From the NCBI RefSeq assembly GCF_000305935.1, contig NC_018870.1, positions 1,907,001 through 1,971,000 of the forward strand: a DNA stretch of 64,000 nucleotides, given 5' to 3'. Source of the DNA: Thermacetogenium phaeum DSM 12270. Lineage in GTDB: Bacteria > Bacillota > DSM-12270 > Thermacetogeniales > Thermacetogeniaceae. A program made the translations under genes and the position numbers. This document shows, piece by piece, positions 14,101-30,712 of this stretch. Positions within the stretch are counted from its first letter, which is position 1; the number at the start of each line of letters is the position of its first letter. The notes under the pieces were generated by a model. That model ran no database searches, was not told the origin of the DNA, and saw nothing but the letters and a program-made list of their open reading frames with translations.

Positions 14101-16411
14101 TCGGGGTAATTAGTGCAACTTAATGTCTGCAACGAGAGCGAATTTTTCAGACTTCCTTTCAGTCCCCTTTTCATCGGGGTAATTAGTGCAACAAGATTAA
14201 AGCAAATAATGGAGGCTCGTAATCTGAGACCTTTCAGTCCCCTTTTCATCGGGGTAATTAGTGCAACCGCCAATTATGTGACCGCCGCACTGCAGGGTTA
14301 AGGACTTTCAGTCCCCTTTTCATCGGGGTAATTAGTGCAACCAAATTCAAGCCTGTCGTCCTGGGTATCAACGCCACCTTTCAGTCCCCTTTTCATCGGG
14401 GTAATTAGTGCAACTGAAATGAAGTTGACGCTGAAAATCACTTTGACTCACTTTCAGTCCCCTTTTCATCGGGGTAATTAGTGCAACGATGTAGTCTTCT
14501 TCTCCAGGAAGGGAGAAAACGACCCTTTCAGTCCCCTTTTCATCGGGGTAATTAGTGCAACTTCTGATATGCGGATATATCCGACTGTGTTTTACTGACT
14601 TTCAGTCCCCTTTTCATCGGGGTAATTAGTGCAACGTTGCTAATAGGGTTTGTATCGAGATACGCGAATATGACTTTCAGTCCCCTTTTCATCGGGGTAA
14701 TTAGTGCAACATAATGCAAATTGCCTGGGCTATGGCCAAGGCCGATGCCTTTCAGTCCCCTTTTCATCGGGGTAATTAGTGCAACATTTATATCAAATTT
14801 CATTTCTTTGACGGTGAAAGCCCTTTCAGTCCCCTTTTCATCGGGGTAATTAGTGCAACCAGAAAGAGATAGTTTGTTCAAGCTAGCAGACCAGCGAACT
14901 TTCAGTCCCCTTTTCATCGGGGTAATTAGTGCAACGCCGGCGGCCGCTGAACTGGCAAACTTATATATCGAACTCTTTCAGTCCCCTTTTCATCGGGGTA
15001 ATTAGTGCAACTCATAAACATATTTACAGGCCAGTTTGTAGTCGGTACTTTCAGTCCCCTTTTCATCGGGGTAATTAGTGCAACAATTGAAAAACCCCTG
15101 ATTCGTCTTTCCTGGCCGTTCTTTCAGTCCCCTTTTCATCGGGGTAATTAGTGCAACTGGAAAAACTTTATATGACCGTTACGGTTAATTAACTTTCAGT
15201 CCCCTTTTCATCGGGGTAATTAGTGCAACCCCGACCGGGGGATAACTGGCACCTTCCTGGTACAGACTTTCAGTCCCCTTTTCATCGGGGTAATTAGTGC
15301 AACAACTAAGAGAAACCGGGCTGACCGCCGAGCAGGTACTTTCAGTCCCCTTTTCATCGGGGTAATTAGTGCAACTGCTTTGAATTTGTCCAATGCAAGG
15401 TTTGAATTGCAAACTTTCAGTCCCCTTTTCATCGGGGTAATTAGTGCAACCGTGGTAATATGATATCGGGAGCCGTTTGAGAGGAGCTTTCAGTCCCCTT
15501 TTCATCGGGGTAATTAGTGCAACAGCTCAACGAGCTGGCGTTGTCCTTTAATCAGGTTGCTTTCAGTCCCCTTTTCATCGGGGTAATTAGTGCAACCCTG
15601 GCGTAAGCGATCAAATTGGCTCTCCATGCCCTCTTTCAGTCCCCTTTTCATCGGGGTAATTAGTGCAACAGAATACCATCTCAAAGTCCTCGCCTCGCTC
15701 CCAGAGCCTTTCAGTCCCCTTTTCATCGGGGTAATTAGTGCAACGGGTGTGGGCACGAAGCATTCAAAGTGTACTTTGAAGACTTTCAGTCCCCTTTTCA
15801 TCGGGGTAATTAGTGCAACCAGATCGGAATTCTATGGCGCCGCTACTGCCGGATTGCTTTCAGTCCCCTTTTCATCGGGGTAATTAGTGCAACCCCTGAA
15901 GAGTAAAAGAAAACACAATAGCCGTCCGGGACTTTCAGTCCCCTTTTCATCGGGGTAATTAGTGCAACGATTTTGTTTGTCGAACCATATCATCCGACTT
16001 CCACCTTTCAGTCCCCTTTTCATCGGGGTAATTAGTGCAACAGCCCGTTGATATTTTGAATTGCACATACTTTACATTACTTTCAGTCCCCTTTTCATCG
16101 GGGTAATTAGTGCAACAGCAGTACGGACGGGATTAAGAAGGGGTGAATTGTTCTTTCAGTCCCCTTTTCATCGGGGTAATTAGTGCAACGAGTGCAGCAG
16201 GCCAGCCAGTGCGGGCTTCAGCGATGACTTTCAGTCCCCTTTTCATCGGGGTAATTAGTGCAACGAGTTATTATTGGCGCATAGCTGCCCGTGATACAAC
16301 ACTTTCAGTCCCCTTTTCATCGGGGTAATTAGTGCAACACCTATATCCCTTGGTATATTGGGGCTTTGATGAAACTTTCAGTCCCCTTTTCATCGGGGTA
16401 ATTAGTGCAAC
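8104..16411 (-). CRISPR. CRISPR array, about 113 repeats of 37 nt and 112 spacers
   Basis: Direct repeats of 37 nt, on the plus strand beginning CTTTCAGTCCCC and ending TAATTAGTGCAAC, separated by unique 34-41 nt spacers. I counted 113 repeats by eye; length divided by unit size agrees. An internal CCCC-TTTTCAT-CGGGG inverted repeat gives a short hairpin. Transcription is inferred to be leftward (minus strand): the cas operon and a gene-free leader lie on the right, in that sense repeats end GGGGACTGAAAG (a typical 8-nt crRNA handle), and only the leftmost repeat at 8104 is altered (terminal base), as expected at the leader-distal end. All other copies look identical. Open frames inside the array are artefacts of the repeat. 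Confidence 0.99.
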
Positions 16412-16779
16412 CGCATCAGGCTGTATGGTTCAAAGCCTTACCGTACAGAGGATTCCGCGGAATGTTCAACCGCTTTTCAAGGGCAAAAATTCGAAGCGAA
16501 GATTTTTGCATGAAAAACTACTCCTCTTTCGAAATTTTCGAAATTTCTTTTTTCAGCTAACTTCGTATTTTCAGGGCATTTAATAACAACCTCGAACCCT
16601 TATCGATGTCAGATATTTACTCCTCAGGCTTCTTTTTCGAAAAACCATTGGCGATAACCAATTTGAGCTACGGTTAGGAACATAAGGAACCAACCGAAAG
16701 TAAAAGTCTTATTTCCCTAATCAAGTACTCTTCTAGCGGAACCTTTCTTCTTAATTCCGAAAGTTACATACCAGAAAAA
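16412..16779 (-). promoter_or_regulatory. CRISPR leader (inferred)
   Basis: A 368-bp AT-rich region with no gene lies between the first (leader-proximal) repeat and the csa1 stop codon. It contains nested palindromic blocks around 16519-16545 (TTCGAAATTTTCGAAATTTC) and another Tsp-like TTTTTCGAAAAA near 16632. The leader should hold the array promoter and sites guiding spacer integration at the repeat at 16375-16411. Exact promoter boxes were not assigned. Confidence 0.75.
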
Positions 16780-17736
16780 CTACGGAATTGAAGAAGTCAA
16801 CAATTCGGAACCATCCTCAGCGCAGCAAACGTGATAAAAGGGACAGGTAGCAGGGCAGTCCTCGGCCAGACCGGGGTCAATTTCTTCGGTGACGAAGCGC
16901 GCTTTCTCGTCGCGCTCCTCGATGAACCACTGCCGCAATTCATCGCTTATGATGTGAATATCTCGCTTCACAATCAGCCGGTCTCCCCTGAACTCTCCGT
17001 AAATAATGCACCCCAGGTTCACCGGAAACTCGTAAATGGCCTCCATCACCAGTGCGTAGCCGGTAGTACCCAGTCTATGGAAGTCTCGGGGCTCCCCGAA
17101 CTTCAGGTCGAGGATCATCGGCTCATAAAAGATAAAGGCATCCGTGCTTAAGTTGCCGCTCAAGCCGAGAAAGGCCCCATTGAGCTTCTGTTCCACCACG
17201 ACTGGAATCGTGAGATTCGCAAGGGAATCCTCACCAATGTAAGGGTAGCGGGTGAGCACCTCTTGAAGGCGGGAGAGCACCCGCGCCTTCTCAAAGCTGC
17301 ACAGGATCTCAACTTTTCTGGACAGATCGGCCGCCTCTGAATCGGTAAGGCCTGCAAAATGAGACGTTTTCTCCGGAATGTACTTTTCGAGTTCCTCACA
17401 GATTGCCCGATACTTCTCCGTTCCGTGGAGGTAAATCGCCCGTTTCGCAGTTACGAGAAGGTCGGCCAGGACTTCATGGAGAACCATCCCCTGAATCATT
17501 GCAGAGTTGGGTTCTCCCTTGATTCCTTGTACCCGGCGCAGAAAGACATCCCTGCCGGATGGGCAGTACTTGCCGGCCACCTCGTACAAAGCGAGAACCG
17601 AACCATAAACGGGCTCCAGCGGAGGCTGGTGCCAGTTCCAACCCCGCAGCTCATCGACCACCCCGAGCTCCCGCGCTTTTGGAAGGTAGTAGCGCAGAAG
17701 CTGCTTTCTCTCGTCATCAGACAGAAAATACATCAT
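16780..17736 (-). CDS. csa1: Csa1, second Cas4-family nuclease of the adaptation module
   Basis: 318 residues from the ATG at 17736, which overlaps the cas4 stop as ATGA. The protein has an early YCPSGRDVFLRR motif and a RecB-nuclease-like strand MILDLKFGEPRD (D-x-K). It ends with a C-terminal Cys group CPATCPFYHVCC. This Cys arrangement suits the Fe-S cluster of Cas4/Csa1 proteins. Csa1 is best known from type I-A loci of archaea, where it works with Cas4, Cas1 and Cas2 in trimming and orienting new spacers. It is the last cas gene before the leader. Confidence 0.85.
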   Translation of the reverse strand: MMYFLSDDERKQLLRYYLPKARELGVVDELRGWNWHQPPLEPVYGSVLALYEVAGKYCPSGRDVFLRRVQGIKGEPNSAMIQGMVLHEVLADLLVTAKRAIYLHGTEKYRAICEELEKYIPEKTSHFAGLTDSEAADLSRKVEILCSFEKARVLSRLQEVLTRYPYIGEDSLANLTIPVVVEQKLNGAFLGLSGNLSTDAFIFYEPMILDLKFGEPRDFHRLGTTGYALVMEAIYEFPVNLGCIIYGEFRGDRLIVKRDIHIISDELRQWFIEERDEKARFVTEEIDPGLAEDCPATCPFYHVCCAEDGSELLTSSIP

Positions 17737-18311
17737 CCCACATCCCCGCAGTAGTTCTTGTACTCGCAGTCGGCACACCGTCCCCTGCTCCGGGATACGG
17801 CAGGAAAATGCTCCCGCCTGATCAGGCTGCGGATTGCCCCCATAAGCCGCTTGGTATAAAGCCGAGCCTCTGGAGTGGCCTCTATGTAAACTGTGTGCCT
17901 CGAAGGAATCAAATAGATAAAACCGCCCCGTACAGGCTGCCTGAGATGGTCTTCCAGCAGAAGGGTGTAGGCTAAAAGTTGATACTTGTGATTGACCGCA
18001 GGTCGGTAAGTATTCTTAAAATCAACGGGAAAAGAACCACGTGAAACGGCAACATACATGTCCAGTACTCCCTCAAGTCCCAGGCGAGATGAGAAAAGGT
18101 AGACATTAAAGAATCGCTTACCCTCCTCAAAGCCGTAGGAACGCAGCCGGCGCCGCCCCTCAAGCCTCGCCGTTTTCAGGTGCTCTTCTTTGCCGATCTC
18201 CATCTTGGGAGTTGCCCTTTTCTCCACAGGTAAAACGTAAGTAAAGTAAATTATCCGGGGACAGTAAAGATATTGCTTGATGTCGCTCACCTTTAGGATC
18301 GGTTCCATCAT
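17733..18311 (-). CDS. cas4: CRISPR-associated exonuclease Cas4
   Basis: 192 residues. An N-terminal YCPR Cys, the nuclease core FPVDFKNTYRP (D-x-K), a Q-x3-Y motif in KYQLLAYTLLLED and a C-terminal CADCEYKNYC triplet make the RecB-like fold with a 4-Cys Fe-S cluster. Cas4 processes prespacer 3' ends and helps select PAM-containing fragments. The gene follows cas2 by 37 bp and overlaps csa1 by 4 bp, so the four adaptation genes are translationally linked. Confidence 0.92.
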   Translation of the reverse strand: MMEPILKVSDIKQYLYCPRIIYFTYVLPVEKRATPKMEIGKEEHLKTARLEGRRRLRSYGFEEGKRFFNVYLFSSRLGLEGVLDMYVAVSRGSFPVDFKNTYRPAVNHKYQLLAYTLLLEDHLRQPVRGGFIYLIPSRHTVYIEATPEARLYTKRLMGAIRSLIRREHFPAVSRSRGRCADCEYKNYCGDVG

Positions 18312-18348: not shown

Positions 18349-18651
18349 TTAAATAACTAACGGCCCCTTCTGCAACCCCGCCAATTTTCGTGAGAGAGAA
18401 TCGGTTTCCGGAACCGCGACCTCGAGAATCAGCGACAGGTCCTTATCACAAATAGGGCAGATGAGAATCTTCCCCTCTTTACCTCCAAGGACCCGATACA
18501 GGCGCTGCTGAAGTTCCTGACGACGGTTGTGGTTCAACTCTCCAAAGAAAGCCGAATACTGGATGTGCACGAGACCGTAATCTTTGCAGGTTTCGAAGGT
18601 CTTGGTCCGGATCCGGTCATCGGGAATATCGTAAACAACGAGAGTTTTCAA
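18349..18651 (-). CDS. cas2: CRISPR-associated endonuclease Cas2
   Basis: 100 residues, the normal length. It opens with MKTLVVYDIPDDR, the ferredoxin-like first strand with the conserved Asp, and has the SAFFGEL block typical of Cas2. Cas2 is the central dimer of the Cas1-Cas2 integrase. It lies 30 bp downstream of cas1 in the same operon. Confidence 0.96.
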   Translation of the reverse strand: MKTLVVYDIPDDRIRTKTFETCKDYGLVHIQYSAFFGELNHNRRQELQQRLYRVLGGKEGKILICPICDKDLSLILEVAVPETDSLSRKLAGLQKGPLVI

Positions 18652-18681: not shown

Positions 18682-19692
18682 CTACCATCCGGCAATAAAG
18701 GGCTTGTACTTCCCCTCCCCCCTCAGGTAGGCAGCAACCCGCCTTGCCTGGCGCTGAACAATCGATCTCATCTTGTACTTTTTCCCTTCGTAATTCTCCT
18801 CGCCGTCCAGGCGCTCCAGTATCCTCCTGGCAAGCTCGCGCCTGGTCTCTTCAGTAAGGCTTCCCTCATTCTGGTTAATCGCGGTCCCTCTGAGGATCAT
18901 ACCGATCACCGTACGGTCGACGATGCAGGCGCGGAACTCCTCGGTCAGGTCGAGTACAAGGCTGGGCTTGCCAGGTCGGTCGGTGTGAAGAAATCCGGCA
19001 AAAGGCTCCAGTCCTGCCAGCATCACCGCTCCCCAGACCTGGGAGTAGAGGATGCCGTAGCCGTAGTTCAGCGCTGAATTCACGGGATCCTCAGCGCCCC
19101 GGCGCTCCCGGCCGGCGAACTCGATTCTTTGCCCGAGCAGGAGCCCTACACCTTCCCAGTAAGCCTGGGCAGCACGGCCTTCGATGGAGAAGATATTACC
19201 CCTTGCCTCCTCTACCGTTCCATCAGATATGCCCTCCAACTCCTTTTTGATTTCCTCTATTGCGGCGATCCGGGTGACCAACTCCTGGTAAAGAGCGGCG
19301 TCGGAGGCCCGTCGGTACTTCCCGAAATATTTCAAAACGTTTACCTGGTTCCGGAGCTTTCCGTCGATAAAGGCCAACGCCAGGGCAAGCCCGCGGCCGT
19401 CTTTATAGGCGAGGATCTGCTCCCTGCGGGTGAGCACCGTTCCGCTCAGTTGAGGGGAGGTTATCTTGGCGTAGGGCTTACCCGAAGGCGTCAGGAAGTT
19501 GATCTGGATTCCATGTTGAATGCACTCGAGCACCACGTCGGAGGAAAGGGAAACTCCCCGCGAAGCAATAGTAAGGCACGTGACATCCTGGAAAGGTATC
19601 TCACCTATCACCTTACCCTGTTCTTTGATGACCAGGCGCTCGCTTTTCTTCCCCAGAGTCGTCCCAAAATTGACGATGAAGATTTCGGACAG
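18682..19692 (-). CDS. cas1: CRISPR integrase Cas1, probably starting at CTG
   Basis: The frame shows the Cas1 core: an EARGNIFSIEGRAAQAYW helix (metal Glu), FLHTDRPGKPSLVLDL (His) and DLTEEFRACIVD (acidic). The first usual start (GTG, 19611) would delete the N-terminal strands. The frame remains open upstream and encodes typical Cas1 N-terminus (IFIVNFGTTLGKKSERLVI, then KEQGKVIGEIP). A TGA is met six bases beyond the CTG at 19692, and no ATG/GTG/TTG exists between. GGAGGTGAGGTG sits just before that CTG. I therefore call a CTG start and a 336-residue protein, the normal Cas1 length. Confidence 0.92.
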   Translation of the reverse strand: MSEIFIVNFGTTLGKKSERLVIKEQGKVIGEIPFQDVTCLTIASRGVSLSSDVVLECIQHGIQINFLTPSGKPYAKITSPQLSGTVLTRREQILAYKDGRGLALALAFIDGKLRNQVNVLKYFGKYRRASDAALYQELVTRIAAIEEIKKELEGISDGTVEEARGNIFSIEGRAAQAYWEGVGLLLGQRIEFAGRERRGAEDPVNSALNYGYGILYSQVWGAVMLAGLEPFAGFLHTDRPGKPSLVLDLTEEFRACIVDRTVIGMILRGTAINQNEGSLTEETRRELARRILERLDGEENYEGKKYKMRSIVQRQARRVAAYLRGEGKYKPFIAGW

Positions 19693-19825: not shown

Positions 19826-20182
19826 TCAGACCAGCGTGTCCTTCGCCCCTTCCCAGCTCTCAGACCACCATCCCCGCCCGGCCTGGACAAGAGCTGAAGT
19901 ATTCTCGGCAATGCGGAAGAGAACGATAATAGTCTCCATCCAAACCCGGCCGCCGATCACCCAGAGGAAAAAGAAGACCACCGCCCAGATCAGGCTGAAA
20001 AGGAAATTTCCAAGCCACCAGCCGAACTGCATCGTTCTCATCCCGCCCGTTGCGAGCATGCCCAGCGCCCCGATGACCCCGATGGCAATCCACAGGCAGT
20101 AGAGAATCGGAATGATTTTCAGTGTGACGAAGGATGAAAAGGAAAAATCGAAGAGCCGGGGCCAGAAAGATTTTTCGGTCAT
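19826..20182 (-). CDS. DUF4282 family membrane protein inside the cas operon
   Basis: 118 residues with an ATG preceded by AGGAGG. The pattern is a short Phe-rich amphipathic start (FWPRLFDFSFSSFVTLKIIPILY) and two hydrophobic segments, with the second ending IETIIV-like MEIIIVLFRIAENT. This matches DUF4282, a two-helix membrane family of unknown function often seen near RDD or tubby-like proteins. It lies 21 bp after csc1 and about 130 bp before cas1, on the same strand, so co-transcription with cas genes is likely. A role in the CRISPR response is unproven. Confidence 0.8.
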   Translation of the reverse strand: MTEKSFWPRLFDFSFSSFVTLKIIPILYCLWIAIGVIGALGMLATGGMRTMQFGWWLGNFLFSLIWAVVFFFLWVIGGRVWMETIIVLFRIAENTSALVQAGRGWWSESWEGAKDTLV

Positions 20183-20203: not shown

Positions 20204-20986
20204 TCACAATATCCTCTCTTGTCTCAGGAGCTCAAAGTAGAAATCAGGTACACAGAGACCACTACCGTCGGAAAAGGCAAATTCCATATAACCAGCTTTT
20301 TTTCGGGTGGTTCCACGCAAGATGATATACCGCAAAGTAGTAGCCAATACCTCAAAAGACTCAAAGTTTTGCCAATAATGGCTATGATTAGCATGCAACT
20401 CCAACCAGCCTGTGATGCATTTCCCGCATTTTACTGTTCCCTCAACTACCTCGGAAAGACCTACTATCTGGAACATCGTCCGTTTTTTGCCCAGCAGGAA
20501 GGTCTGGCCTTCGGCAAAACTCTCCAACAATTCAGGTTTAGCTGAAAGGCCATAAGTTACCAATCGCTGGTCGGGCTTGATTGCCTGAATGGTGCCGTAG
20601 GTCGGGACATAGTAAGGGCGATCTTTTGCCTCCAGGCTGCCCTTTTTGAACATATAGCTGCGGCCGGTGCTGGGGTAGAATTCGTGCACGACGTTGAAGG
20701 CCGTAGTATCTAGAAAGGCATCGGGAAGGCGATGGCTTCCCTCTGCCATGAAGATACCCGGTAAGAACCAAACAGGCATAGCCGCCACGTCATAGGCTTG
20801 AGTGAAGGCGTCCGGGTCGTTTCTCAAGTCTATCAGGCGCGGCCGCCAGGTAGCACCCCGTGTTAGGCTGGCGTAGAGGGCCTCGCTGGTCACGTGGGTA
20901 TGGGTTCGGTAATCCGACCCGAAGTCAGATGCTACCACGGTGAAGCGCCCGCAGTTCCTGAGAGTAATAGCCCTAGCGTAGAGCAC
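20204..20986 (-). CDS. csc1: Csc1, Cas5-type subunit of type I-D Cascade
   Basis: 260 residues from a GTG with AGAGGTGAT upstream overlapping the csc2 stop. The N-terminal TLRNCGRFTVVASDFG and THTHVTSEALYASLTRG blocks and the long middle strand region are typical of Csc1/Cas5d-like RAMP proteins of type I-D. It should cap the crRNA 5' handle in the surveillance complex. Order csc2-csc1 directly after Cas10d genes is the standard I-D arrangement. Confidence 0.88.
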   Translation of the reverse strand: MLYARAITLRNCGRFTVVASDFGSDYRTHTHVTSEALYASLTRGATWRPRLIDLRNDPDAFTQAYDVAAMPVWFLPGIFMAEGSHRLPDAFLDTTAFNVVHEFYPSTGRSYMFKKGSLEAKDRPYYVPTYGTIQAIKPDQRLVTYGLSAKPELLESFAEGQTFLLGKKRTMFQIVGLSEVVEGTVKCGKCITGWLELHANHSHYWQNFESFEVLATTLRYIILRGTTRKKAGYMEFAFSDGSGLCVPDFYFELLRQERIL

Positions 20987-20999
20987 AGTGCATCACCTC

Positions 21000-21941
<942 letters not shown>

Positions 21942-21996: not shown

Positions 21997-22626
21997 TCAG
22001 TTTCCGGCCGCCTCTTCCGGTGTCTCCATGGCCTCCATCTCCCGCAGTTTCCAGCGATAGCGCTGGCGGTTGGCAAGGAGAAACTCCTCGGCTTCGGTAA
22101 CGATGGTCTGAAGCCGCTCACCTTCACCGTAAACCTGGGCCAGTTTGGCGATGTGCGGCTGAACTACTCTGCGGAAGTTGGCCCGGATGGCATCTTCCTC
22201 CAGAGCATCTGGATTTCCCCGGTTGGCCTCGGCGTAGGCCCCGGTGAGCAGCCTCCGGGGGTAAAGGTACTCATAGGCCCGAGCGTAGAGGCTGCGCTTG
22301 AGATGGTTCAAGTTGTCCTTGCGCCCCTCAAAAAGGCCCCGATGGTCCAGGAGCCACTTCTTAAGGGCCAGGAGTTCAGGGAATTCCTGTTCCCGCCGGT
22401 AGTCGCTGGCATCCCGCAGCACCTTACTCTTCCACTCCTCAAAGCCGGCCTCCACGTTGTCGTAGTAGCGGATGCAGCCCAGTAATAAGCGCGGGTATTT
22501 TTCGTAAGCGGTAGGCCGCTCGCTCAAAAAGAGGGGCAAAAGGTCACCACCTAGCCGGTCAAGGGTGCGAAAGAGAAGCTGACAAAATTCGTCCATTTCC
22601 GTTGTGTTCACCTGTCTTGGCATCAT
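21997..22626 (-). CDS. Stand-alone helical protein in the Cas11d (small subunit) position
   Basis: 209 residues from ATG 22626, set by GGAGGTG four bases upstream; an in-frame extension to 22653 lacks a site. The protein is almost entirely predicted helix, basic and rich in Arg, Tyr and Leu (KRSLYARAYEYLYPRRLL), with no catalytic motif. It lies between the Cas10d gene (gap 39 bp) and csc2 (gap 55 bp). In characterised type I-D systems the small subunit is made by internal translation from the 3' part of cas10d. Here that part seems to be a gene of its own. Assignment as Cas11d rests on position, size and helical character. Confidence 0.6.
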   Translation of the reverse strand: MMPRQVNTTEMDEFCQLLFRTLDRLGGDLLPLFLSERPTAYEKYPRLLLGCIRYYDNVEAGFEEWKSKVLRDASDYRREQEFPELLALKKWLLDHRGLFEGRKDNLNHLKRSLYARAYEYLYPRRLLTGAYAEANRGNPDALEEDAIRANFRRVVQPHIAKLAQVYGEGERLQTIVTEAEEFLLANRQRYRWKLREMEAMETPEEAAGN

Positions 22627-22665
22627 TTCACCTCCTCGATTTGCTGAGGCCACAAATGGCTGGGG

Positions 22666-24726
22666 TCATAATTGTTTGAGTTGCTCTATCAGTTTCAGAT
22701 ACTCTGTCCCGTCAACCACCCCCATTCCTTTCGCGAACTCATTGGAAAGACGCCTGTATCGGGCTTCGCGCAAGTCGTCGCCGACTCGCAAGGGCGAATC
22801 CCGCAGGACCTCCGAGAAAGTGCCTAGAGGATCTTCTTCAAGCCGTTCGGCCAGGAGAATCCAATCGGCCAGAAGCGAATGGCCTTCCCGCCACTTGACT
22901 ACTCGTCGGGCGAAGTTAACGATGGCGCTGAAATGCCGGATGACATCGTCGGCGTTTTCGGCCTTACCCTGGACGTAGAAGGTGTTGGTGTCGAACCCGC
23001 CGGGAGCTAGAGTTGGTACCGATTGGAAGTAATAAGGCCCATCGCAGCCGCACAGCTTGCGTAAGAGGGCTAGCAGGGTGAAAGCAGCGAGACGGCTCTT
23101 GGAAAAACGCCGCTGAACAAAGTCTAGGGCTTCCTCCCGGCCTGGTTGGAGCTGAGGCAAGATGAAGGCCAAGAGGCGGTAGTCGCCCACTCCCAGTGGC
23201 AGGACTTGGGCCTTCACATCGGTGCGCATCTGGCCCAGGGTCTCTAGACCGGGGGCCACGGTGTCGTCAGCAATTAGCGCAGCGAAGGCTTCCTCGGCGC
23301 TGGGGATCTCCCCTGCCGAGCAGGGATCCATGTCTTGGCGCTCCCTTTCCCACCGGATCAATTCCTCCCGCATATATTCTACCGAGAACGGTCTCTTATC
23401 CTCGCGGGCTCTTTGTTGGAAAGTGCCGATTCGCTCAAATAAATAATCAATCACGGCCGCAAGCCGCCGGGCATCTGCCTCACCGTGACGTCCGTAGTGG
23501 AAGATGATGTTAAACTGCTTCGGTACCGGAAAGTCTTTCGCCTTGGGTTGTGGTCTGGCGATGTGCATACCCAATAGTTTAATCACTAAATAGCTACTGA
23601 TCCCACATCGAACACACAGGGCCTCTTCGAAGGGTCGCAGCTTCGGCGACTGATTATAAAAGCGGCCAGCCCCAAACCCACCGGTGATGTTTTTTTCCGC
23701 GATGATGGCGGCATCAGCACTGCAAAAGCGACATGGCATCTTTCTCTCTGCGGCTGCCTTGCATCCAATTTCCCATATTGGCAGAAAACCAAGCTGCACC
23801 CCCTGAACCAGAACACTGGCAGCCTGGGCAAGGCTCAAGGCCGGCATCTTTCTTGCCAAATTGGCTGCTACTGTTTCAGCTGCCCCGTTGTCTATTTGCT
23901 GCTGCACATTGCTCAGAAATCCGTCAATTGCAATCTTAAGTTGAGCCCGGTCAATCACTTGGGCATTCTTTCGTTCAGTGAAAACAGTCTTATCAAAAAT
24001 ATCTCCTGGCCCCAAGGCGAAGGCGCCTCGCACTGGTGCTGTCGGGAGCAAGCCTTCGTTCATAGCCCGGCAAAGAAAGGCGTAGAAGCTCTGCATTTCT
24101 GTACCGTCCTTGGCGTAGAAGAAACTTAGAATAGCCAGGATGATGTTGATATTCGTTTCTTCCTCCTCTACAAGTTCTCGTAACCTCCGATTGATCTTAG
24201 CAAGTAATCCAGGCAAAAGGTCACGTGGGACAGCAAAGGCTGGAAAGGGTTCGATGTTGCTCTTATAGAAAGTCAACATCCGCCCAATATCGCCGTAAAT
24301 GCCACGAGCTTGATCCTCATCGCCGAAGTAAAGGTCAGGTAGGCTATCGAGGATCTCTTGCCGGAAGCATTCAGCTATCTGGTCCAGAACCACCTCTCCG
24401 TGGTAGAGATAGTAATGGCTCTCCAGGTCGTTGGCCAAAAGCCTAATGCGGCCCAGACCGTTCCGCTCTACCGCCCGAATCAATGCCTTGCTCAAAAAAT
24501 CGTTAAGTAGCACGTTGCCGAGGAAAACCTCCTCCCGCCGCACCACAGGGGAATAGAGGCGGATCACGGCCAGATGAGAACCGTCTGAGAGGGTCTGCTC
24601 CCAATAGGCAGCACCATCGGCCACCAGAGACGCCACTGTATGGCTGCCGACAGCGTTGCCCAAACTCCAACTATTCAAGGTTTCCTCTGCCGCTTGAACA
24701 ACGAATGTAAAAGGGTTTCCGTTCAT
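22666..24726 (-). CDS. cas10d: Cas10d/Csc3 large subunit lacking the HD domain
   Basis: 686 residues, well below the usual roughly 1,000 for Csc3. A four-Cys zinc-finger unit is visible in the middle (CRFC near residue 340, CVRC about 40 residues later). N- and C-terminal mixed alpha/beta and helical parts flank it. No GGDD cyclase motif is present, as expected for type I-D. There is no HD motif; the HD domain is encoded by the preceding gene, with which it overlaps by 4 bp (ATGA). It should form the large subunit that recognises PAM in the surveillance complex. Confidence 0.85.
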   Translation of the reverse strand: MNGNPFTFVVQAAEETLNSWSLGNAVGSHTVASLVADGAAYWEQTLSDGSHLAVIRLYSPVVRREEVFLGNVLLNDFLSKALIRAVERNGLGRIRLLANDLESHYYLYHGEVVLDQIAECFRQEILDSLPDLYFGDEDQARGIYGDIGRMLTFYKSNIEPFPAFAVPRDLLPGLLAKINRRLRELVEEEETNINIILAILSFFYAKDGTEMQSFYAFLCRAMNEGLLPTAPVRGAFALGPGDIFDKTVFTERKNAQVIDRAQLKIAIDGFLSNVQQQIDNGAAETVAANLARKMPALSLAQAASVLVQGVQLGFLPIWEIGCKAAAERKMPCRFCSADAAIIAEKNITGGFGAGRFYNQSPKLRPFEEALCVRCGISSYLVIKLLGMHIARPQPKAKDFPVPKQFNIIFHYGRHGEADARRLAAVIDYLFERIGTFQQRAREDKRPFSVEYMREELIRWERERQDMDPCSAGEIPSAEEAFAALIADDTVAPGLETLGQMRTDVKAQVLPLGVGDYRLLAFILPQLQPGREEALDFVQRRFSKSRLAAFTLLALLRKLCGCDGPYYFQSVPTLAPGGFDTNTFYVQGKAENADDVIRHFSAIVNFARRVVKWREGHSLLADWILLAERLEEDPLGTFSEVLRDSPLRVGDDLREARYRRLSNEFAKGMGVVDGTEYLKLIEQLKQL

Positions 24727-25487
24727 CGAAGTCCTCCCCCTATCAGTTTCAGGGTTTCCTTTAGCCCGTAATTTCTGGGGTCATAGCGTTTGAGCCCCGC
24801 TTCGATCTCGTCGGCGTTCTCGGTAAGGTAGGCGAACACCTCCCCAAGGCTAGATGCCTGGTTAAAAAAAGGCCGGTAGTCCTGCCCCTGCTCGTGGCAA
24901 TATGAAGCTACAAGATCGCCAATCATCACGAGACCGCCCAGAGGATGATAGGTAAAGAGCAGGTCCACCAGTGTGATGCGCCGCTCCTCGTTAGGATAGA
25001 AGGAAGTCCATTGGCGGCGAATGAGAGGACGAAGGGTGCCGGCCTTTTCTCGCTCATAGGAAAGATGAAAGAACCCGTGGTGGGTCACCGCAAAGGCCCA
25101 GATGTGATCCATAGCCGTTCCTTCCAGGTTCGCCAGGTCAAGATCATAACCACAAGCTCCCCGCAGTTCCTGCCGGATGGCTTCTTTGCTCTCTTCTACC
25201 ATACGGGGATGGTCATAGTCAAAGGTGCTGGCCTCGTGCTTAACCCTCTTACCGGGCAAGGATTGGGCACTGGCGGCTGCATTCAACATGGCCTGGAAAT
25301 CCGGGTCGAGTTTTCCCACATCGTGTACAAAGGTTGCAAAGATTAGCCGGTCCAGCCGGGGCCCCGGTGCCTCACCGGCCAGCCGGGCCACCCGTAGGGC
25401 CACCTCCACGCAGGACAAAGAGTGATCGTAAAGGGTTTGCCGGCCTGTTGACTTGCCTAAGGTAGCCTTATACTTGTCTATTAGCAT
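24723..25487 (-). CDS. Stand-alone HD nuclease (Cas3''-type) of the I-D system
   Basis: 254 residues from ATG 25487, chosen because GGTGGAG is four bases upstream; the frame is open to 25553. Motifs in order: LYDHSLSC (His 22), FATFVHDVGKL (HD at 55-56), KHEASTFDYDHPRMV and AFAVTHHGFFHL. These are the metal-binding histidines and aspartates of HD-domain CRISPR nucleases. In most type I-D loci this domain is the N-terminus of Cas10d. It overlaps the cas3' 3' end by 20 bp and cas10d by 4 bp, which suggests coupled translation. Confidence 0.88.
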   Translation of the reverse strand: MLIDKYKATLGKSTGRQTLYDHSLSCVEVALRVARLAGEAPGPRLDRLIFATFVHDVGKLDPDFQAMLNAAASAQSLPGKRVKHEASTFDYDHPRMVEESKEAIRQELRGACGYDLDLANLEGTAMDHIWAFAVTHHGFFHLSYEREKAGTLRPLIRRQWTSFYPNEERRITLVDLLFTYHPLGGLVMIGDLVASYCHEQGQDYRPFFNQASSLGEVFAYLTENADEIEAGLKRYDPRNYGLKETLKLIGGGLR

Positions 25488-28383
25488 ACTCCACCAGCCT
25501 CCGATAGACATAAAAACATGCCCCCGCCACCCGTTCGAGAAGCACAGGCCCAAAGCTTCCTGGCACCACCAAGCTTTCCCAATTGTAAATGATCTCTTCC
25601 AAATTAAGGGCCGAGGCTCTTTTTAGTAACTCCTCCGCTTCCTCCCTGGTATAGCCGAACATAATTAACCAGGTTTGGTCGGGCAGCACTAGCGGGTTGC
25701 CAAGTTGGTCCTCCACCGGCTCGGCGATACCATCCGCATCCACCCGCAGAAGATGCACATCACCCTGGCCCAGGACGAGGCGAGAGTAAGACTCAAAGAA
25801 CAAGGGCAATGCCTCTCCTATCTGAACCAGAAGCTGAGGAAGTGGCTTGGACGCCTCAGGGCGTATCTTCGAGAGAAATTCTTCCAAATCATGCCGAATT
25901 TGCTCCTCCAATGCCTTTAAGAGAACTCCAACGGGTTGCCCTTTGCTGACCGGCTCGCTGATAAATAACCTCACGTAATCCGCGGCAACACCATAACCAG
26001 CCCGCACGTGCCACTGTCCGCCTTGCCACCAGAAGAGTACCTGACTGGCCTCCAGCGTGGCTTTAGTGTCTACAGCAATAGCCTTCCATACCGATTTCTT
26101 CCATAGAAACTCCAAGTACCACATCTCAGCCCGGGCCATTTCAAAAGGCGAATCGCCGGGCAAAAGCCGCTCGTTGGACACTTTGCGCAGAATATAGAAG
26201 GGGTCCCCCCCTACGCCCCCCTGGAGAACGACTTCTGGAAGCGTCCCCCTCAAACCATAAGCGAAAGGCAGATTTGCTTCCCGCAACTTCCGGCCTAAAG
26301 TACCCACTTCGTTGCCAAACATGGTCCGATTGAGCCATTCACCAATCTCGCCCAATTGGGCGTTGACCATCCAGTGGGTAGCGTCTAAGAAGGCCGAGCC
26401 TTCGGCGTAAAGCCGGGCCGGAAAAAGACCATTTGCAGGATCGGCAATAAGGGCAGAGAACTCATCCCTGCTCACCGGGGTCCAAAGGCGCTGAAACAAG
26501 TTCACATAAGTCTCGCCATCCCTTATCAAAACGAATATTTTGCCCTGGATACCCGGACGGCGCCCCACCCGTCCGAAGCGCTGCAAGAAACTGTTGCCGT
26601 CGCATTGCTCGGTAATAAGGACATCAGCAGCAAAATCCACTCCGACTTCAACGGCTGGCGTGGATATCAGCACTGCTCTGTGAAGCTTACTAAAGGCATC
26701 TAACAGTCCCTCGCGTTCTGTGCGGGACATTTTACCGGTATAGATTACTACAGGTACATCCGTGTCGCCCCACATAGCAATGTGGCGCGCCTCAACATCC
26801 AGTTCCTTAGCTGCCAAAGCCTGATGTATACGCTCAATCAATGCCTGCTTCCGAGAGGGATCCACGACCAGCCAGTCCAGCCAAGAAAGGGCGACACGCC
26901 GTTCGGCCAACTCCCCGGGGGACATCCTGAGCCCCGCTGCACTTTGCTCCGGAAGATTCACGGTGTATTTCAGATGGTTGGTAATCGCTTCGGACAATTC
27001 GGGACTTGCGCCTGCCTTTTGGAGAGACTCTGTAATCTCTCTGAAAGCCGGAGCGGTTACCCATAGTGAGTCCTCCGTCCAAAGGCGTTCCAGTCCGGAC
27101 TGAATAATCCTTATGTATTCGTTCAGTGCCTCAATGACAGCGTTGATATCCGGTTCCTGATTTAACATCGGCTTAACCTCATTCCATAGTAACCGGGATA
27201 ACTTCCCCTTTCCTCTTAATTGCCGGTTCATGGCTTCAATCAGGTGCTGCTCTCCACCCCGGTTCAGAGAGTAGAGGAGACGTTTAAGACTGTAGGTATG
27301 GCATTCCAGCAACCGTGCTACCCTGGCGGCCAATATCTCAATGGATAGATCAACGCGAGTTCCTTCATCCAGGTCCTTCAGGTAAAAAGGCCCTTCTCGC
27401 TTTAGCCACCCCTCTATCTCCTCCACGGTTTCCATCACCATCCCTTCCTGCTCCAGCCAGCCCTTGAATTTGCCCCAGGGGATGCGTCCAAACCGCATCT
27501 GCAGGTCGGGTGATAAGTCAGGTAGGGATCTGCCTTTGATGCCTTCAAAGACCCTGTGAGCCAGATCAGCGGAGTTGAAAACCAGGAGAATCTTCTGTGC
27601 CCCGTCGGCCAAGACAGATTCAACAGCGCCAATCAGTCTGTCACGGCGCTCTTCGTAGCCCCTCTCCGGTTCAAGAAATGTCACTTCTACATCGCCGCAC
27701 TTGGACCGACCTCGCACCTCCACCCCGTTCGTAAGACGACGCAATTCTGGCGTAGGCGTAGCGGTGAGGACGTGCCAGCGCGGACGCTTGTCCAGCCTCT
27801 CACCAAGCAGACATATTCTTTGCTTGAGATGCGTCAGATTTCGCAGCATCAGACCATTGAACAGGTGTGCTTCGTCTAAAATGAACTCGTCTACCAATGC
27901 CAGGCCATAGATGAGCAGACCGCTATATTTGGCGTTCTTACGGAAAAACCAGTAGACCTCGTCAGGAGTAGCCAGGATAACCGGCTTATTTAGCGCCGCC
28001 ATCAGTTGCGTGCGTGACATCTCGCCATGCAACTGGCCTATCTGTAAGCCAGTAATTTCGGCCAGAGTATCCATCACCCGGCGCTGGTCTTCCATTAAGG
28101 CTATCGTAGGATACATCAGCAAAACCTTGCGAATACGTCCTTCCCGCAACTTATGGAACAGCGGTACGGCGATGGCCAGAGTCTTTCCCGCAGCCGTACC
28201 CGCCACCAGGAATACCTCCTGATCTGACAATACCCGACGAAAGACTTCAGCTTGATGTCGGAAAGGAATCAGCATTTCTCCATACTTTACCCGAGTATAG
28301 GACTGAAAAAGATCCTTCACAGATTCAGGAACATTTTCATCTGTTTCGGGTGGCTGGTTAGTAACCAATACGGACAAAGGCAT
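25468..28383 (-). CDS. cas3': Cas3' superfamily 2 helicase, type I-D
   Basis: 971 residues from ATG 28383 (GAGGAGG upstream); a longer frame to 28452 is not supported. Walker A GTAAGKT at residues 62-68, DEAH at 170-173, and motif VI QRFGRVGRRPG near residue 605 define an SF2 helicase. Several hundred further residues follow. No HD domain is fused, as usual for I-D Cas3'. The protein should be recruited to the R-loop and translocate on target DNA while the HD protein cuts. Confidence 0.92.
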   Translation of the reverse strand: MPLSVLVTNQPPETDENVPESVKDLFQSYTRVKYGEMLIPFRHQAEVFRRVLSDQEVFLVAGTAAGKTLAIAVPLFHKLREGRIRKVLLMYPTIALMEDQRRVMDTLAEITGLQIGQLHGEMSRTQLMAALNKPVILATPDEVYWFFRKNAKYSGLLIYGLALVDEFILDEAHLFNGLMLRNLTHLKQRICLLGERLDKRPRWHVLTATPTPELRRLTNGVEVRGRSKCGDVEVTFLEPERGYEERRDRLIGAVESVLADGAQKILLVFNSADLAHRVFEGIKGRSLPDLSPDLQMRFGRIPWGKFKGWLEQEGMVMETVEEIEGWLKREGPFYLKDLDEGTRVDLSIEILAARVARLLECHTYSLKRLLYSLNRGGEQHLIEAMNRQLRGKGKLSRLLWNEVKPMLNQEPDINAVIEALNEYIRIIQSGLERLWTEDSLWVTAPAFREITESLQKAGASPELSEAITNHLKYTVNLPEQSAAGLRMSPGELAERRVALSWLDWLVVDPSRKQALIERIHQALAAKELDVEARHIAMWGDTDVPVVIYTGKMSRTEREGLLDAFSKLHRAVLISTPAVEVGVDFAADVLITEQCDGNSFLQRFGRVGRRPGIQGKIFVLIRDGETYVNLFQRLWTPVSRDEFSALIADPANGLFPARLYAEGSAFLDATHWMVNAQLGEIGEWLNRTMFGNEVGTLGRKLREANLPFAYGLRGTLPEVVLQGGVGGDPFYILRKVSNERLLPGDSPFEMARAEMWYLEFLWKKSVWKAIAVDTKATLEASQVLFWWQGGQWHVRAGYGVAADYVRLFISEPVSKGQPVGVLLKALEEQIRHDLEEFLSKIRPEASKPLPQLLVQIGEALPLFFESYSRLVLGQGDVHLLRVDADGIAEPVEDQLGNPLVLPDQTWLIMFGYTREEAEELLKRASALNLEEIIYNWESLVVPGSFGPVLLERVAGACFYVYRRLVEYANRQV

Positions 28384-28504
28384 TCGAATGCCCTCCTCTA
28401 CTCCACAAAAGGTGCTGATAGCCGGGCTCAAAAACGCCTGGCACCGTAACAACCCCCTTTATTGCCGGCAGCGAGCGCTCTCCATTTGTGCTTTAAACGG
28501 TTAT

Positions 28505-29488
28505 CTACATCTCGGGGCTCCCTCTATACAGTTTCACAACCTCCCCCGCCTCTGCGGCCACTTCTTCCCGCAGGCTCTGCGGGGCCAGCACCTCGGCGTG
28601 GCTGCCGTACCCCATCACCCACCGCTTGACCTCGGCCAGGCCGCCGGTCCGGAAGCGCAGGATCAAACCGCCGTCCGGCAGCTCCTCCACCGTCTGGGTT
28701 GGGTGCCAGCGCCGCTCCCGGATGTAGCGCGCCTGGTAGGCGTCGAATCTGACAGCCACTTCCACCGGTTCCTCACCGCGTTCTATCTGAAAGGCCTGTC
28801 CCATCCACTCCTCGAGGTGAAAATCAGGGTCACGGGTAAATCCGGATTTCAAAACCTCCCACCGGTCGACGCGCCCGGTATGGAAAATGCGATAGGCAGA
28901 ACGCAGGTGGTCAAAAGCGATCAGGTACCAGTCACCGCTGCGGTTGTAAAGGTGATAGGGGTCGACGACCCGTTCCTGCCAGCAGCCACGGCTCGCGGTG
29001 TAGTAGTGGATCTTCACTTGATGCTGCTCCTGAACGGCTCGCTGCAGGTCGAGGAGAAATTCCTCCGGTACTCCCACATTCGGATACGAGGCAAAGGTAA
29101 AGCTTCTCCGCAACTCCTCCAGATTCACCTCTACCGGAGCCTTCAGGCTGGCTGTGATCTTCTTCACCGCAGAGCGCAGAGCGGCCTCAAAGGGGGTGCC
29201 CAGGCAGCGGCGTGCCGCCTCCACGCTCAGGAAGAAGGCTAAAAGCTCTCCCTGGGTCATCAGCACCGAAGGCAGCACCCAGGTGGGATCGGTGTAGTAC
29301 CAGCCGCCGCGCTGCCGGTCATAAGCCAGAGGAGCGCCCAGCCGGTCCATCAGAAACTGCCGGTCCTGGTAGATTGTGCGCTCGCTCACCTCCAGCTCAC
29401 GGGCCAGGCTCCGGGCGTTGGGATAGAGCTTTGCCCGCACCTGGCGGTCGATTTCCATGATGCGCTCCAGCTGCTGCCTTCCCGACAC
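28505..29488 (-). CDS. HTH-WYL transcriptional regulator of the CRISPR locus
   Basis: 327 residues from a GTG with AAGGGG upstream. An N-terminal winged helix (NARSLARELEVSERTIYQDRQFLM) is followed by a WYL domain with DPYHLYNRSGDWYLIAFDH and a C-terminal WCX extension (RWVMGYGSHAEVLAPQSLREEV). WYL regulators sense ligands, possibly nucleic acids. They are frequent next to type I-D loci; one represses such a locus in Synechocystis. It is 121 bp upstream of cas3' on the same strand. Confidence 0.88.
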   Translation of the reverse strand: MSGRQQLERIMEIDRQVRAKLYPNARSLARELEVSERTIYQDRQFLMDRLGAPLAYDRQRGGWYYTDPTWVLPSVLMTQGELLAFFLSVEAARRCLGTPFEAALRSAVKKITASLKAPVEVNLEELRRSFTFASYPNVGVPEEFLLDLQRAVQEQHQVKIHYYTASRGCWQERVVDPYHLYNRSGDWYLIAFDHLRSAYRIFHTGRVDRWEVLKSGFTRDPDFHLEEWMGQAFQIERGEEPVEVAVRFDAYQARYIRERRWHPTQTVEELPDGGLILRFRTGGLAEVKRWVMGYGSHAEVLAPQSLREEVAAEAGEVVKLYRGSPEM

Positions 29489-29683: not shown

Positions 29684-30712
29684 TTACTCCGCAAGAATTC
29701 GCAGAGCAAATTTCCCCTGTCCGAAGACCGTCCCCTTGCCCACGTGGATCAGTTCGCCCAGCAGGAGCAGGGGAAGGAATTCCGCAAGCGGCCCTTCGTA
29801 GACCGCCCGCCCTACGAAACCCTCCAGGGGGATCCGTCGCCCCTGGCGGGACGAGTAGCGCCCGATGGTGACCCAGGAGGTTTTGTCCCGGACGAGGTGC
29901 ACCTCACAGGCGCGCCGGATGACCTCGGGGAATTCTGCCTCGTAGAGAAAGCCGTGGTAGAAATAGCAGAGGGATGAAACGCGGCGAAGCAGATTGCGGA
30001 TGATGGTATGAAACTCCGGGGTGTGGATTGCTGCGCCTTGATGGGTGATTCGGGTTGGTGTGCAGAAGTTGATCTCAATTTTCTGCAGGCCGTCTACCGG
30101 ATACCCGGCAGCCCTGTTCCAGATGTCTTCGGCGGTAACGGATAGATCACGAGGCCTGACGATCCGGTCTTCCCGTCGATAGATAACGGCGGCCACACCT
30201 GTAAGAGGATTAACTGCGACTATTTCCTCCAGGAAAAACGGCCTGCGCCCTTTGCCGATGCCCCGGTGTGTAAACTCCTCAAGGGTGACGACGAAATAGG
30301 GCAGAAGGTTTCTCGCCCTTCCAAAGAGGAGCAGGGTAAAGTCAAAGGCCTCTCCCGGGCTGTAGCGGGTTTTCTCATCCGGCGGAGGTTCCAGGACAAA
30401 GGGCCGGGGAACGGCATCAAAGCTGCGCAGGACTTCGGATTCAGGCGGCGGCTCGCTCTCGAAGACCAGAGTATACGGACAGCCGTGCTTTAAACGGCAC
30501 TTTTTGCACTCACCGGTGCCGTCTGAGCAGACGAGGCGCCGAAAGGTTCCGGCAAACCCGCCGCGGAAGGTGGAACCCTTGTAGGGTGGAAGGATGACGC
30601 CGTCTGCGCCGGCGCGAAATCGCGCTTCATAGCGGCTGAGAACGAGGCCCTGCGGGCAAGGAAGGAAACTCAAAGGAAACACCTGCCATGCCATTGATCC
30701 CAAGAAGGGCAT
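29684..30712 (-). CDS. cas6: Cas6 family crRNA-processing endoribonuclease
   Basis: Up to 342 residues; the true start is uncertain because no good site precedes the ATGs at 30712 or 30694, and the conserved part begins at about residue 27 (SRYEARFRAG). Features of PF10040-type Cas6: an N-terminal strand followed by YKGSTFRGGFAGTFRRLVC, a Cys cluster CKKCRLKHGCPY, and the C-terminal Gly-rich loop HVGKGTVFGQGKF. It should cut within each 37-nt repeat to leave an 8-nt 5' handle. It is separated from the WYL gene by 195 bp but is on the same strand. Confidence 0.87.
   Translation of the reverse strand: MPFLGSMAWQVFPLSFLPCPQGLVLSRYEARFRAGADGVILPPYKGSTFRGGFAGTFRRLVCSDGTGECKKCRLKHGCPYTLVFESEPPPESEVLRSFDAVPRPFVLEPPPDEKTRYSPGEAFDFTLLLFGRARNLLPYFVVTLEEFTHRGIGKGRRPFFLEEIVAVNPLTGVAAVIYRREDRIVRPRDLSVTAEDIWNRAAGYPVDGLQKIEINFCTPTRITHQGAAIHTPEFHTIIRNLLRRVSSLCYFYHGFLYEAEFPEVIRRACEVHLVRDKTSWVTIGRYSSRQGRRIPLEGFVGRAVYEGPLAEFLPLLLLGELIHVGKGTVFGQGKFALRILAE

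What the first reader, a model, noticed from the sequence alone, without database searches (positions are those of the whole stretch)
21997..25487. Type I-D Cas10d divided into three separate genes
Seen: HD nuclease (254 aa), large subunit without HD (686 aa) and a helical protein (209 aa) follow each other, with overlaps or gaps of 4 and 39 bp. Their summed length, about 1,150 residues, is close to one full Cas10d. Known: in described I-D systems the HD is fused to Cas10d and Cas11d comes from internal translation of the cas10d 3' end. Inference: this locus uncouples all three, giving stoichiometry control by gene rather than by internal start.
Basis: partly seen in the sequence, partly recalled or inferred. 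Interest (0 to 1): 0.75.

Follow-up and report, generated by a model that had tools for sequence, protein, structure and literature searches.

The report
Three-gene CRISPR type I-D large subunit
A thermophilic bacterium and at least eleven relatives encode the nuclease, core and small-subunit parts of a type I-D-like CRISPR complex as three separate genes, where textbook type I-D systems have one fused gene, and one relative shows how such genes fuse while keeping an internal start.

Summary
On the minus strand a stand-alone HD nuclease gene (25487-24723), a 686-aa HD-less large subunit (24726-22666) and a ~209-aa helical protein (22626-21997) lie between a Cas3' helicase gene and a Csc2-like cas7. 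The same three separate genes occur in 11 further genomes (Firmicutes, Chloroflexi, one archaeal MAG, Rubrobacter) under purifying selection. The 686-aa protein aligns end to end with Cas10d between the HD domain and the Cas11d start, so it has no Cas11d region.

The 'divided Cas10d' reading is partly supported. PADLOC already lists these proteins as I-D large and small subunits, and separately encoded Cas11 is common in other I-D loci (9 of 20 sampled). What is unusual is the detached HD. It stays next to cas3' in 12 of 12 loci but leaves cas10 in 2, so it may act as a Cas3'' partner of Cas3', as in type I-A. Whether the split is ancestral or derived is unresolved. Fold searches were inconclusive.

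Two bonuses: Rubrobacter fuses cas10 and cas11 in frame and keeps a perfect internal ribosome site; a same-family relative has replaced this module with another I-D type, leaving scars of cas3' and cas11.

The parts
24723..25487 (-). Stand-alone HD nuclease (Cas3''-like), 254 aa; metal-site residues H22, H55-D56, H84, H136-H137, D191 invariant in the nine aligned sequences
   Evidence: Pfam Cas3_HD 1.3e-9; PADLOC Cas3 PDLC01254 1.5e-11 against Cas10d 7.8e-4; alignment A7
22666..24726 (-). Large subunit without HD and without Cas11 region, 686 aa; invariant CxxC...CxxC zinc site (C332, C335, C371, C374); degenerate palm hairpin, no GGDD
   Evidence: PADLOC Cas10_Id PDLC01506 1330 bits; global profile alignment to Cas10d, P 2.5e-9; A4; model
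21997..22626 (-). Putative Cas11 small subunit, 209 aa (208 if the second ATG at 22623 is used), all helical
   Evidence: PADLOC Cas11d PDLC01499 1.2e-97; model pLDDT 88; fused to Cas10 in L011
22628..22636 (-). Ribosome-binding site AGGAGGTGA of the cas11 gene
25468..28452 (-). Cas3' helicase without HD, 994 aa; its 3' end overlaps the HD gene by 20 bp
   Evidence: PADLOC Cas3 PDLC01533 1686 bits; TIGR03158 type I-D Cas3' 59.8 bits, cutoff 69.1
21000..21941 (-). Csc2-like Cas7, 313 aa
   Evidence: TIGR03157 37.0 bits, cutoff 38; Pfam Csc2 21.7, cutoff 25.5
20204..20986 (-). Csc1-like Cas5, 260 aa
   Evidence: PADLOC Cas5d PDLC01497 2.6e-147
19826..20182 (-). Small DUF4282 protein between cas5 and cas1; role unknown
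   Evidence: Pfam DUF4282 4.6e-22
18682..19611 (-). Cas1
   Evidence: TIGR00287 8e-75
18349..18651 (-). Cas2
   Evidence: position next to cas1; homologues at the same place in relatives
17733..18311 (-). Cas4
   Evidence: homologous to cas4 of relatives
16780..17778 (-). Csa1-type Cas4
   Evidence: PADLOC Cas4 1.8e-72 and Cas4a/Csa1 3.3e-64
29684..30712 (-). Cas6
   Evidence: Pfam CRISPR_Cas6 2e-21; PADLOC 1e-93
28505..29488 (-). WYL-domain regulator
   Evidence: Pfam WCX 1.5e-23 and WYL 1.8e-20
8104..16412 (-). CRISPR array: 113 repeats of 37 nt, all but the first (one mismatch) of those listed identical; read on the minus strand the repeat ends GGGACTGAAAG

Best explanation
The locus encodes a complete type I-D-like Cascade in which the three domain blocks of Cas10d are separate proteins. 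The 686-aa protein is the core large subunit (RRM, zinc finger, inactive palm, thumb); it would recognise the PAM at the foot of the Csc2-like Cas7/Cas5 filament. The 209-aa Cas11 would line the filament and hold the non-target strand. The HD protein is a stand-alone Cas3'' nuclease, most likely recruited or activated together with the Cas3' helicase whose gene it overlaps, rather than being a built-in arm of the large subunit. Gene order, homology and domain boundaries are shown; subunit roles, assembly and target cleavage are inferred.
For: Order cas3'-HD-cas10-cas11-cas7-cas5 matches Synechocystis cas3'-cas10d-cas7-cas5. Large subunit aligns globally with Cas10d columns 111-844 (P 2.5e-9), stopping where Cas11d begins (column 818); Cmr2, Cas8b, helicase, Cas7, reversed and shuffled profiles give global P of 0.3 or more. 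HD profile matches the N-terminus of Cas10d (8.7e-8) and carries all metal residues. PADLOC labels the two other proteins I-D large and small subunit. Rubrobacter (L011) joins cas10 to cas11 in frame with AGGAGGTGA before the internal ATG. HD is adjacent to cas3' in 12 of 12 loci, but apart from cas10 in L008 (cmr genes between) and L016. dN/dS 0.04-0.18. Array of 113 near-identical repeats.
Against: Foldseek found no significant PDB match for either model. For the small protein the I-D large subunit 7sba_I had the highest TM-score (0.36), but at E 9.2. No sequence-profile similarity links this Cas11 to canonical Cas11d. Csc2 scores fall just under the curated cutoffs. No spacer matched phage or plasmid records, so PAM and activity are untested.
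Confidence: 0.72

Rival explanations
1. The three genes arose by fission of a fused Cas10d, and HD still works as a constitutive Cascade subunit bound to the large subunit.
For: Domain order is kept; HD and cas10 overlap by 1-4 bp in several loci including the window; HD resembles the Cas10d HD (8.7e-8 with group b). cas11 has separated from cas10d elsewhere in I-D: L042, L074 and L075 carry 148-155-aa ORFs homologous to the Cas10d C-terminus.
Against: Stand-alone Cas3 HD profiles score better than Cas10d HD profiles. HD leaves cas10 in 2 of 12 loci but never leaves cas3'. In the Cas7 tree the clade lies outside all fused I-D loci, on a branch of 5.2 changes per column with midpoint root. The only fusion/split change polarised inside the clade is a fusion (L011).
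Confidence: 0.35
2. The gene set is the ancestral, unfused state of I-D (stand-alone HD, stand-alone Cas11), and canonical Cas10d arose by two fusions.
For: Makarova 2011 named a stand-alone HD fusing to inactivated cas10 as one possible origin (PMC3150331), and a 2023 review has cas11 fusing to cas10 with its start site retained (PMC10212523). L011 shows exactly that second step. The clade is the outlier of the Cas7 tree.
Against: The tree cannot be rooted: Cas7 of type III shows no detectable similarity at this depth, and long branches may mislead.
Confidence: 0.4
3. The 209-aa protein is an unrelated accessory protein and the 686-aa protein still provides Cas11.
For: No significant fold or profile match to Cas11d.
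Against: The large-subunit profile ends at the Cas11d boundary and its C-terminus is too short. No internal start at a position shared by all. Every one of 12 loci has the coding region between cas10 and cas7, and one fuses it to Cas10.
Confidence: 0.08
4. It is really a type I-A or I-B system, as the genome paper's tentative I-A/APERN label (PMC3551663) implies.
For: Separate Cas3' and Cas3'' and a Csa1-type Cas4 are I-A features.
Against: Cas7 matches Csc2 (2.4e-9), Cas3' matches the I-D helicase family, and the large subunit matches Cas10d better than Cas8b (local P 1.3e-5 against 4e-3). Csa1 also occurs next to HD-fused I-D loci (L048, L051).
Confidence: 0.07
5. Assembly error or decayed genes.
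For: One MAG (L012) has a TAG inside its HD gene.
Against: Same arrangement in 12 genomes, a single-contig host genome, purifying selection.
Confidence: 0.01

Closest known systems
Canonical type I-D (Synechocystis pSYSA; S. islandicus)
   Same: cas3' helicase, Cas10d-like core with zinc finger and inactive palm, Csc2/Csc1-type Cas7/Cas5, collinear gene order, WYL regulator, 37-nt repeat ending GGGACTGAAA(C/G)
   Different: HD and Cas11 are separate genes; large subunit and Cas11 have diverged beyond BLAST or HMMER detection; Csa1-type second Cas4
HD-fused I-D loci with separate cas11 (PADLOC PDLC01192 plus PDLC01194; L047-L051, L077)
   Same: own cas11 gene between cas10 and cas7; related adaptation genes (Cas1 51-96% identical in L047, L048, L051; Csa1)
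   Different: HD stays fused to Cas10d; Cas7 only 24-29% identical; the Cas11 families show no detectable similarity
PADLOC I-D families PDLC01506 (large subunit, 670 positions) and PDLC01499 (small subunit, 185 positions)
   Same: These models are this very clade (1330 and 323 bits)
   Different: Library entries only; I found no paper describing the architecture, the detached HD or the L011 fusion
Type I-A (Cas3', Cas3'', Cas8a, Csa5)
   Same: Helicase, HD nuclease, large and small subunit all separate; Csa1 (from general knowledge)
   Different: Cas7 and large subunit are I-D-like, not I-A

Membership tests
Type I-D CRISPR-Cas | HD nuclease fused to the N-terminus of Cas10d | tested here: not met
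   HD is its own gene in all 12 loci
Type I-D CRISPR-Cas | Cas11d made from inside cas10d | tested here: not met
   Own gene with ribosome-binding site; the exception is L011, fused with internal start. Nine of 20 other I-D loci fail this too
Type I-D CRISPR-Cas | Cas10d core (RRM, zinc finger, inactive palm, thumb) | tested here: met
   Global profile match P 2.5e-9 with negative controls; zinc cysteines invariant; no GGDD. The fold search gave no significant hit, so this rests on sequence profiles
Type I-D CRISPR-Cas | Csc2-type Cas7 | tested here: inconclusive
   TIGR03157 E 2.4e-9 but 37.0 bits against cutoff 38; profile match to group b 1.1e-9
Type I-D CRISPR-Cas | Csc1-type Cas5 | tested here: inconclusive
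   PADLOC Cas5d 2.6e-147, but only P 2e-4 to the canonical Cas5d profile
Type I-D CRISPR-Cas | Separate Cas3' helicase without HD | tested here: met
   994 aa, helicase domains only; TIGR03158 2.4e-16, below its cutoff
Type I-D CRISPR-Cas | GTN PAM and HD-dependent dsDNA cleavage | not testable with these tools
   No protospacer found
Cas11 small subunit | Helical protein of about 120-210 aa encoded between large subunit and cas7 | tested here: met
Cas11 small subunit | Structural match to known Cas11 | tested here: inconclusive
   Best TM-score 0.36 to 7sba_I at E 9.2
Type I-A CRISPR-Cas | Cas8a large subunit and I-A Cas7 | not tested
   No Cas8a reference was fetched; PADLOC and NCBIfam gave no I-A hit for the large subunit or Cas7

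The most novel reading that the evidence does not exclude
The clade is a subtype-level sister of all known I-D that preserves the pre-fusion gene set (stand-alone HD acting with Cas3', stand-alone Cas11), so it is a living intermediate in the origin of Cas10d; Rubrobacter repeats the second fusion step, turning an overlapping ribosome-binding site into an internal start.
Probability: 0.35. Interest if true: 0.75.

Novelty: new variant of a known kind. Interest (0 to 1): 0.52.

Why it matters
Papers state that type I-D lacks a cas11 gene (PMC7689449) and fuses the nuclease to Cas10d. A natural system with all parts separate lets one test what each fusion does: whether the nuclease must be tethered to the large subunit, and whether internal translation of Cas11 is needed. 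The L011 gene shows how an internal start can be born: adjacent genes with a ribosome-binding site inside the upstream coding end lose the intervening stop. The unfused parts may also be convenient for use in eukaryotes, where internal starts are a problem (PMC10212523).

Tried and rejected
PDB sequence searches with single proteins and with profiles gave no Cas hit for large subunit, small subunit, Cas7 or HD. Foldseek gave nothing significant. Profile comparison of this Cas11 with group-b Cas11, canonical Cas11d and the Cas10d C-terminus gave nothing. Type III Cas7 could not root the tree. Internal-start scan of the large-subunit genes: scattered weak candidates, none at a position shared by all; the scan also misses the known Synechocystis start, so it is insensitive there. 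Net charge does not mark Cas11. The array found no protospacers. A Cas8b survey of relatives was empty. L052, first taken as a second split-HD I-D, is a I-B-like locus. The 2015 and 2020 classification papers, the 2020 Cas11 paper and the I-D transposon paper were not held, so an earlier description of this variant cannot be excluded.
Full report
WHAT IS THERE. The window lies in a 2,939,057-bp single-contig genome. The effector genes are there: on the minus strand the order is cas6, WYL regulator, cas3', HD, cas10-like, cas11-like, cas7, cas5, a DUF4282 gene, cas1, cas2, cas4, csa1, array. Reader coordinates, lengths, the 4-bp overlap and the 39-bp gap are all correct.

REAL GENES. Searching 399 genomes of the phylum with the PADLOC large-subunit family gave four further good loci and a scan of 84,980 species genomes gave ten, partly the same: 12 distinct genomes including the window's, from Firmicutes, Chloroflexi, Rubrobacter and one archaeal MAG. 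All carry HD, large subunit and Cas11 as separate coding regions apart from the fusion below (L012's HD has an in-frame TAG). dN/dS between the window and L008/L009 is 0.05-0.08 (HD), 0.09-0.18 (Cas10), 0.04-0.06 (Cas11) (synonymous sites are near saturation, so values are approximate). The family is rare: 1 of 350 genomes in the Chloroflexi sample and 1 of 247 in the archaeal sample, each the seed itself.

IDENTITY OF THE LARGE SUBUNIT. Single-sequence and profile searches of PDB fail. Profile-profile comparison with 26 Cas10d sequences (cyanobacterial, Chloroflexi, Firmicutes, archaeal) gives local P 1.3e-5 around the zinc finger, two weaker matches in the same order on either side, and a global alignment of columns 1-723 with columns 111-844 of 968 (P 2.5e-9). 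Negative controls (Cmr2, two Cas8b, helicases, Cas7, reversed and shuffled Cas10d) give global P of 0.3 or more. Separate archaeal and Firmicutes Cas11d map to columns 818-936 of the same profile (2.5e-21), so the 686-aa protein ends at the Cas11d boundary. The AlphaFold model (mean pLDDT 76) has an RRM-like start, the zinc region, a palm-like sheet with no GGDD, and 5-6 helices after it with a disordered tail. S. islandicus Cas10d has 10 helices there, thumb 624-719 plus Cas11 720-847 (PMC7689449).

IDENTITY OF THE 209-AA PROTEIN. PADLOC calls it I-D small subunit (1.2e-97). The model (pLDDT 88) is all helical, but Foldseek gives no significant hit; the I-D large subunit 7sba_I has the highest TM-score (0.36) of a noise-level list. 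No sequence similarity to canonical Cas11d, or to group-b Cas11, is detectable. The best evidence is Rubrobacter taiwanensis L011: one 942-aa ORF in which the Cas10 part (PADLOC match 6-709) runs into the Cas11 part (match 715-912). The junction reads CTTCAGGAGGTGAATGGCATG, a full ribosome-binding site before the internal ATG, with the strongest predicted pairing of all candidates scanned (-14.6 kcal/mol). In L012 the corresponding DNA is CTTCAGGAGGTGGAATAACATG: stop, one base, ATG. The last Cas10 codons (LQEV) encode the ribosome-binding site in this subclade. L011 nests among split loci in a concatenated tree, so within the clade fusion looks derived. It rests on one draft assembly.

THE HD PROTEIN. 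Metal-site residues are invariant. It matches Cas10d HD by profile (8.7e-8 with group b), yet stand-alone Cas3 HD models score higher in PADLOC (1.5e-11 against 7.8e-4). It is adjacent to cas3' in 12 of 12 loci, overlapping in 11, but is parted from cas10 in L008 (a type III-B cmr cassette lies between) and in L016 (cas3'-HD sits beyond csa1). This favours a Cas3''-Cas3' working pair, as in type I-A, but adjacency is not proof.

Of 21 Csc2-positive loci in Firmicutes and the archaeal phylum, L052 is I-B-like. Of the other 20, nine have a separate cas11: L047-L051 (PADLOC PDLC01194 by direct scan in four of the five), L077 (group-b profile), and L042, L074, L075 with a 148-155-aa ORF homologous to the Cas10d C-terminus. 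No separate HD gene was seen; HD could not be judged in L049 (truncated) and was not detected in L081. So a separate cas11 is common in I-D outside cyanobacteria, contrary to the literature I could read (PMC7689449, PMC10212523), and the detached HD is the distinctive feature here.

DIRECTION. In the Cas7 tree the clade is one side of a fully supported, very long branch (5.2 changes per column) with all other I-D on the other side. Without a usable outgroup the tree cannot say whether the genes were never fused or were split.

MODULE EXCHANGE. In G002 (same family; L047) cas6, WYL, DUF4282 and cas1 are 80, 86, 73 and 96% identical to the window's over the parts held, but the effector genes are the HD-fused group-b type. 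Between WYL and the new cas10d lie leftovers of the window-type module: the first ~60 codons of cas3' joined to the ribosome-binding site and first ~80 codons of cas11, 80-90% identical in DNA. The chassis kept its place while the effector was replaced.

VERDICT. A real, conserved, domain-exact three-gene arrangement in an I-D-related lineage; already present as PADLOC family models, undescribed in the papers I could read. 'Type I-D' is a label by kinship: two textbook I-D features (fused HD, internal Cas11) were tested and are not met. It works like I-D by gene content and order; the mechanism is untested.

Noticed in passing
L011:8995-11823 (Rubrobacter taiwanensis): cas10 and cas11 fused in frame, with a perfect internal AGGAGGTGA before the cas11 ATG at 11137; a recent fusion that appears to keep internal translation.
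   Followed up: yes
L047:11569-11982 (G002, same family as the window): Scar of the window-type effector module (start of cas3' joined to start of cas11) beside a replacing HD-fused I-D module; flanking cas6, WYL, DUF4282 and cas1 are 73-96% identical to the window.
   Followed up: yes
L042, L074, L075, L077, L047-L051: Separate cas11 genes in HD-fused I-D loci of Firmicutes and archaea, several overlapping cas10d by a few bases; the literature read says I-D lacks a cas11 gene.
   Followed up: partly
L008:994-8530; L012:15461-20115: Type III-B cmr genes inserted inside (between HD and cas10) or directly beside the split I-D locus.
   Followed up: no
window 19826-20182; L047:409-735 and 3934-4247: DUF4282 gene between cas5 and cas1, duplicated in L047 at both ends of a stretch of other genes; possible recombination site or accessory protein.
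   Followed up: no
L052:6078-12520 (G134): I-B-like locus with Cas8b-like 720-aa large subunit, Cas5b, a distant Csc2-type Cas7 and a short (520 aa) helicase beside an unassigned 269-aa ORF; unusual mixture.
   Followed up: partly
L012:8216-8983: In-frame TAG in the HD gene at the conserved KHE motif; pseudogene or assembly error.
   Followed up: no
window 8104-16412: 113-repeat CRISPR array, repeats almost all identical, with no spacer match in phage or plasmid collections.
   Followed up: partly
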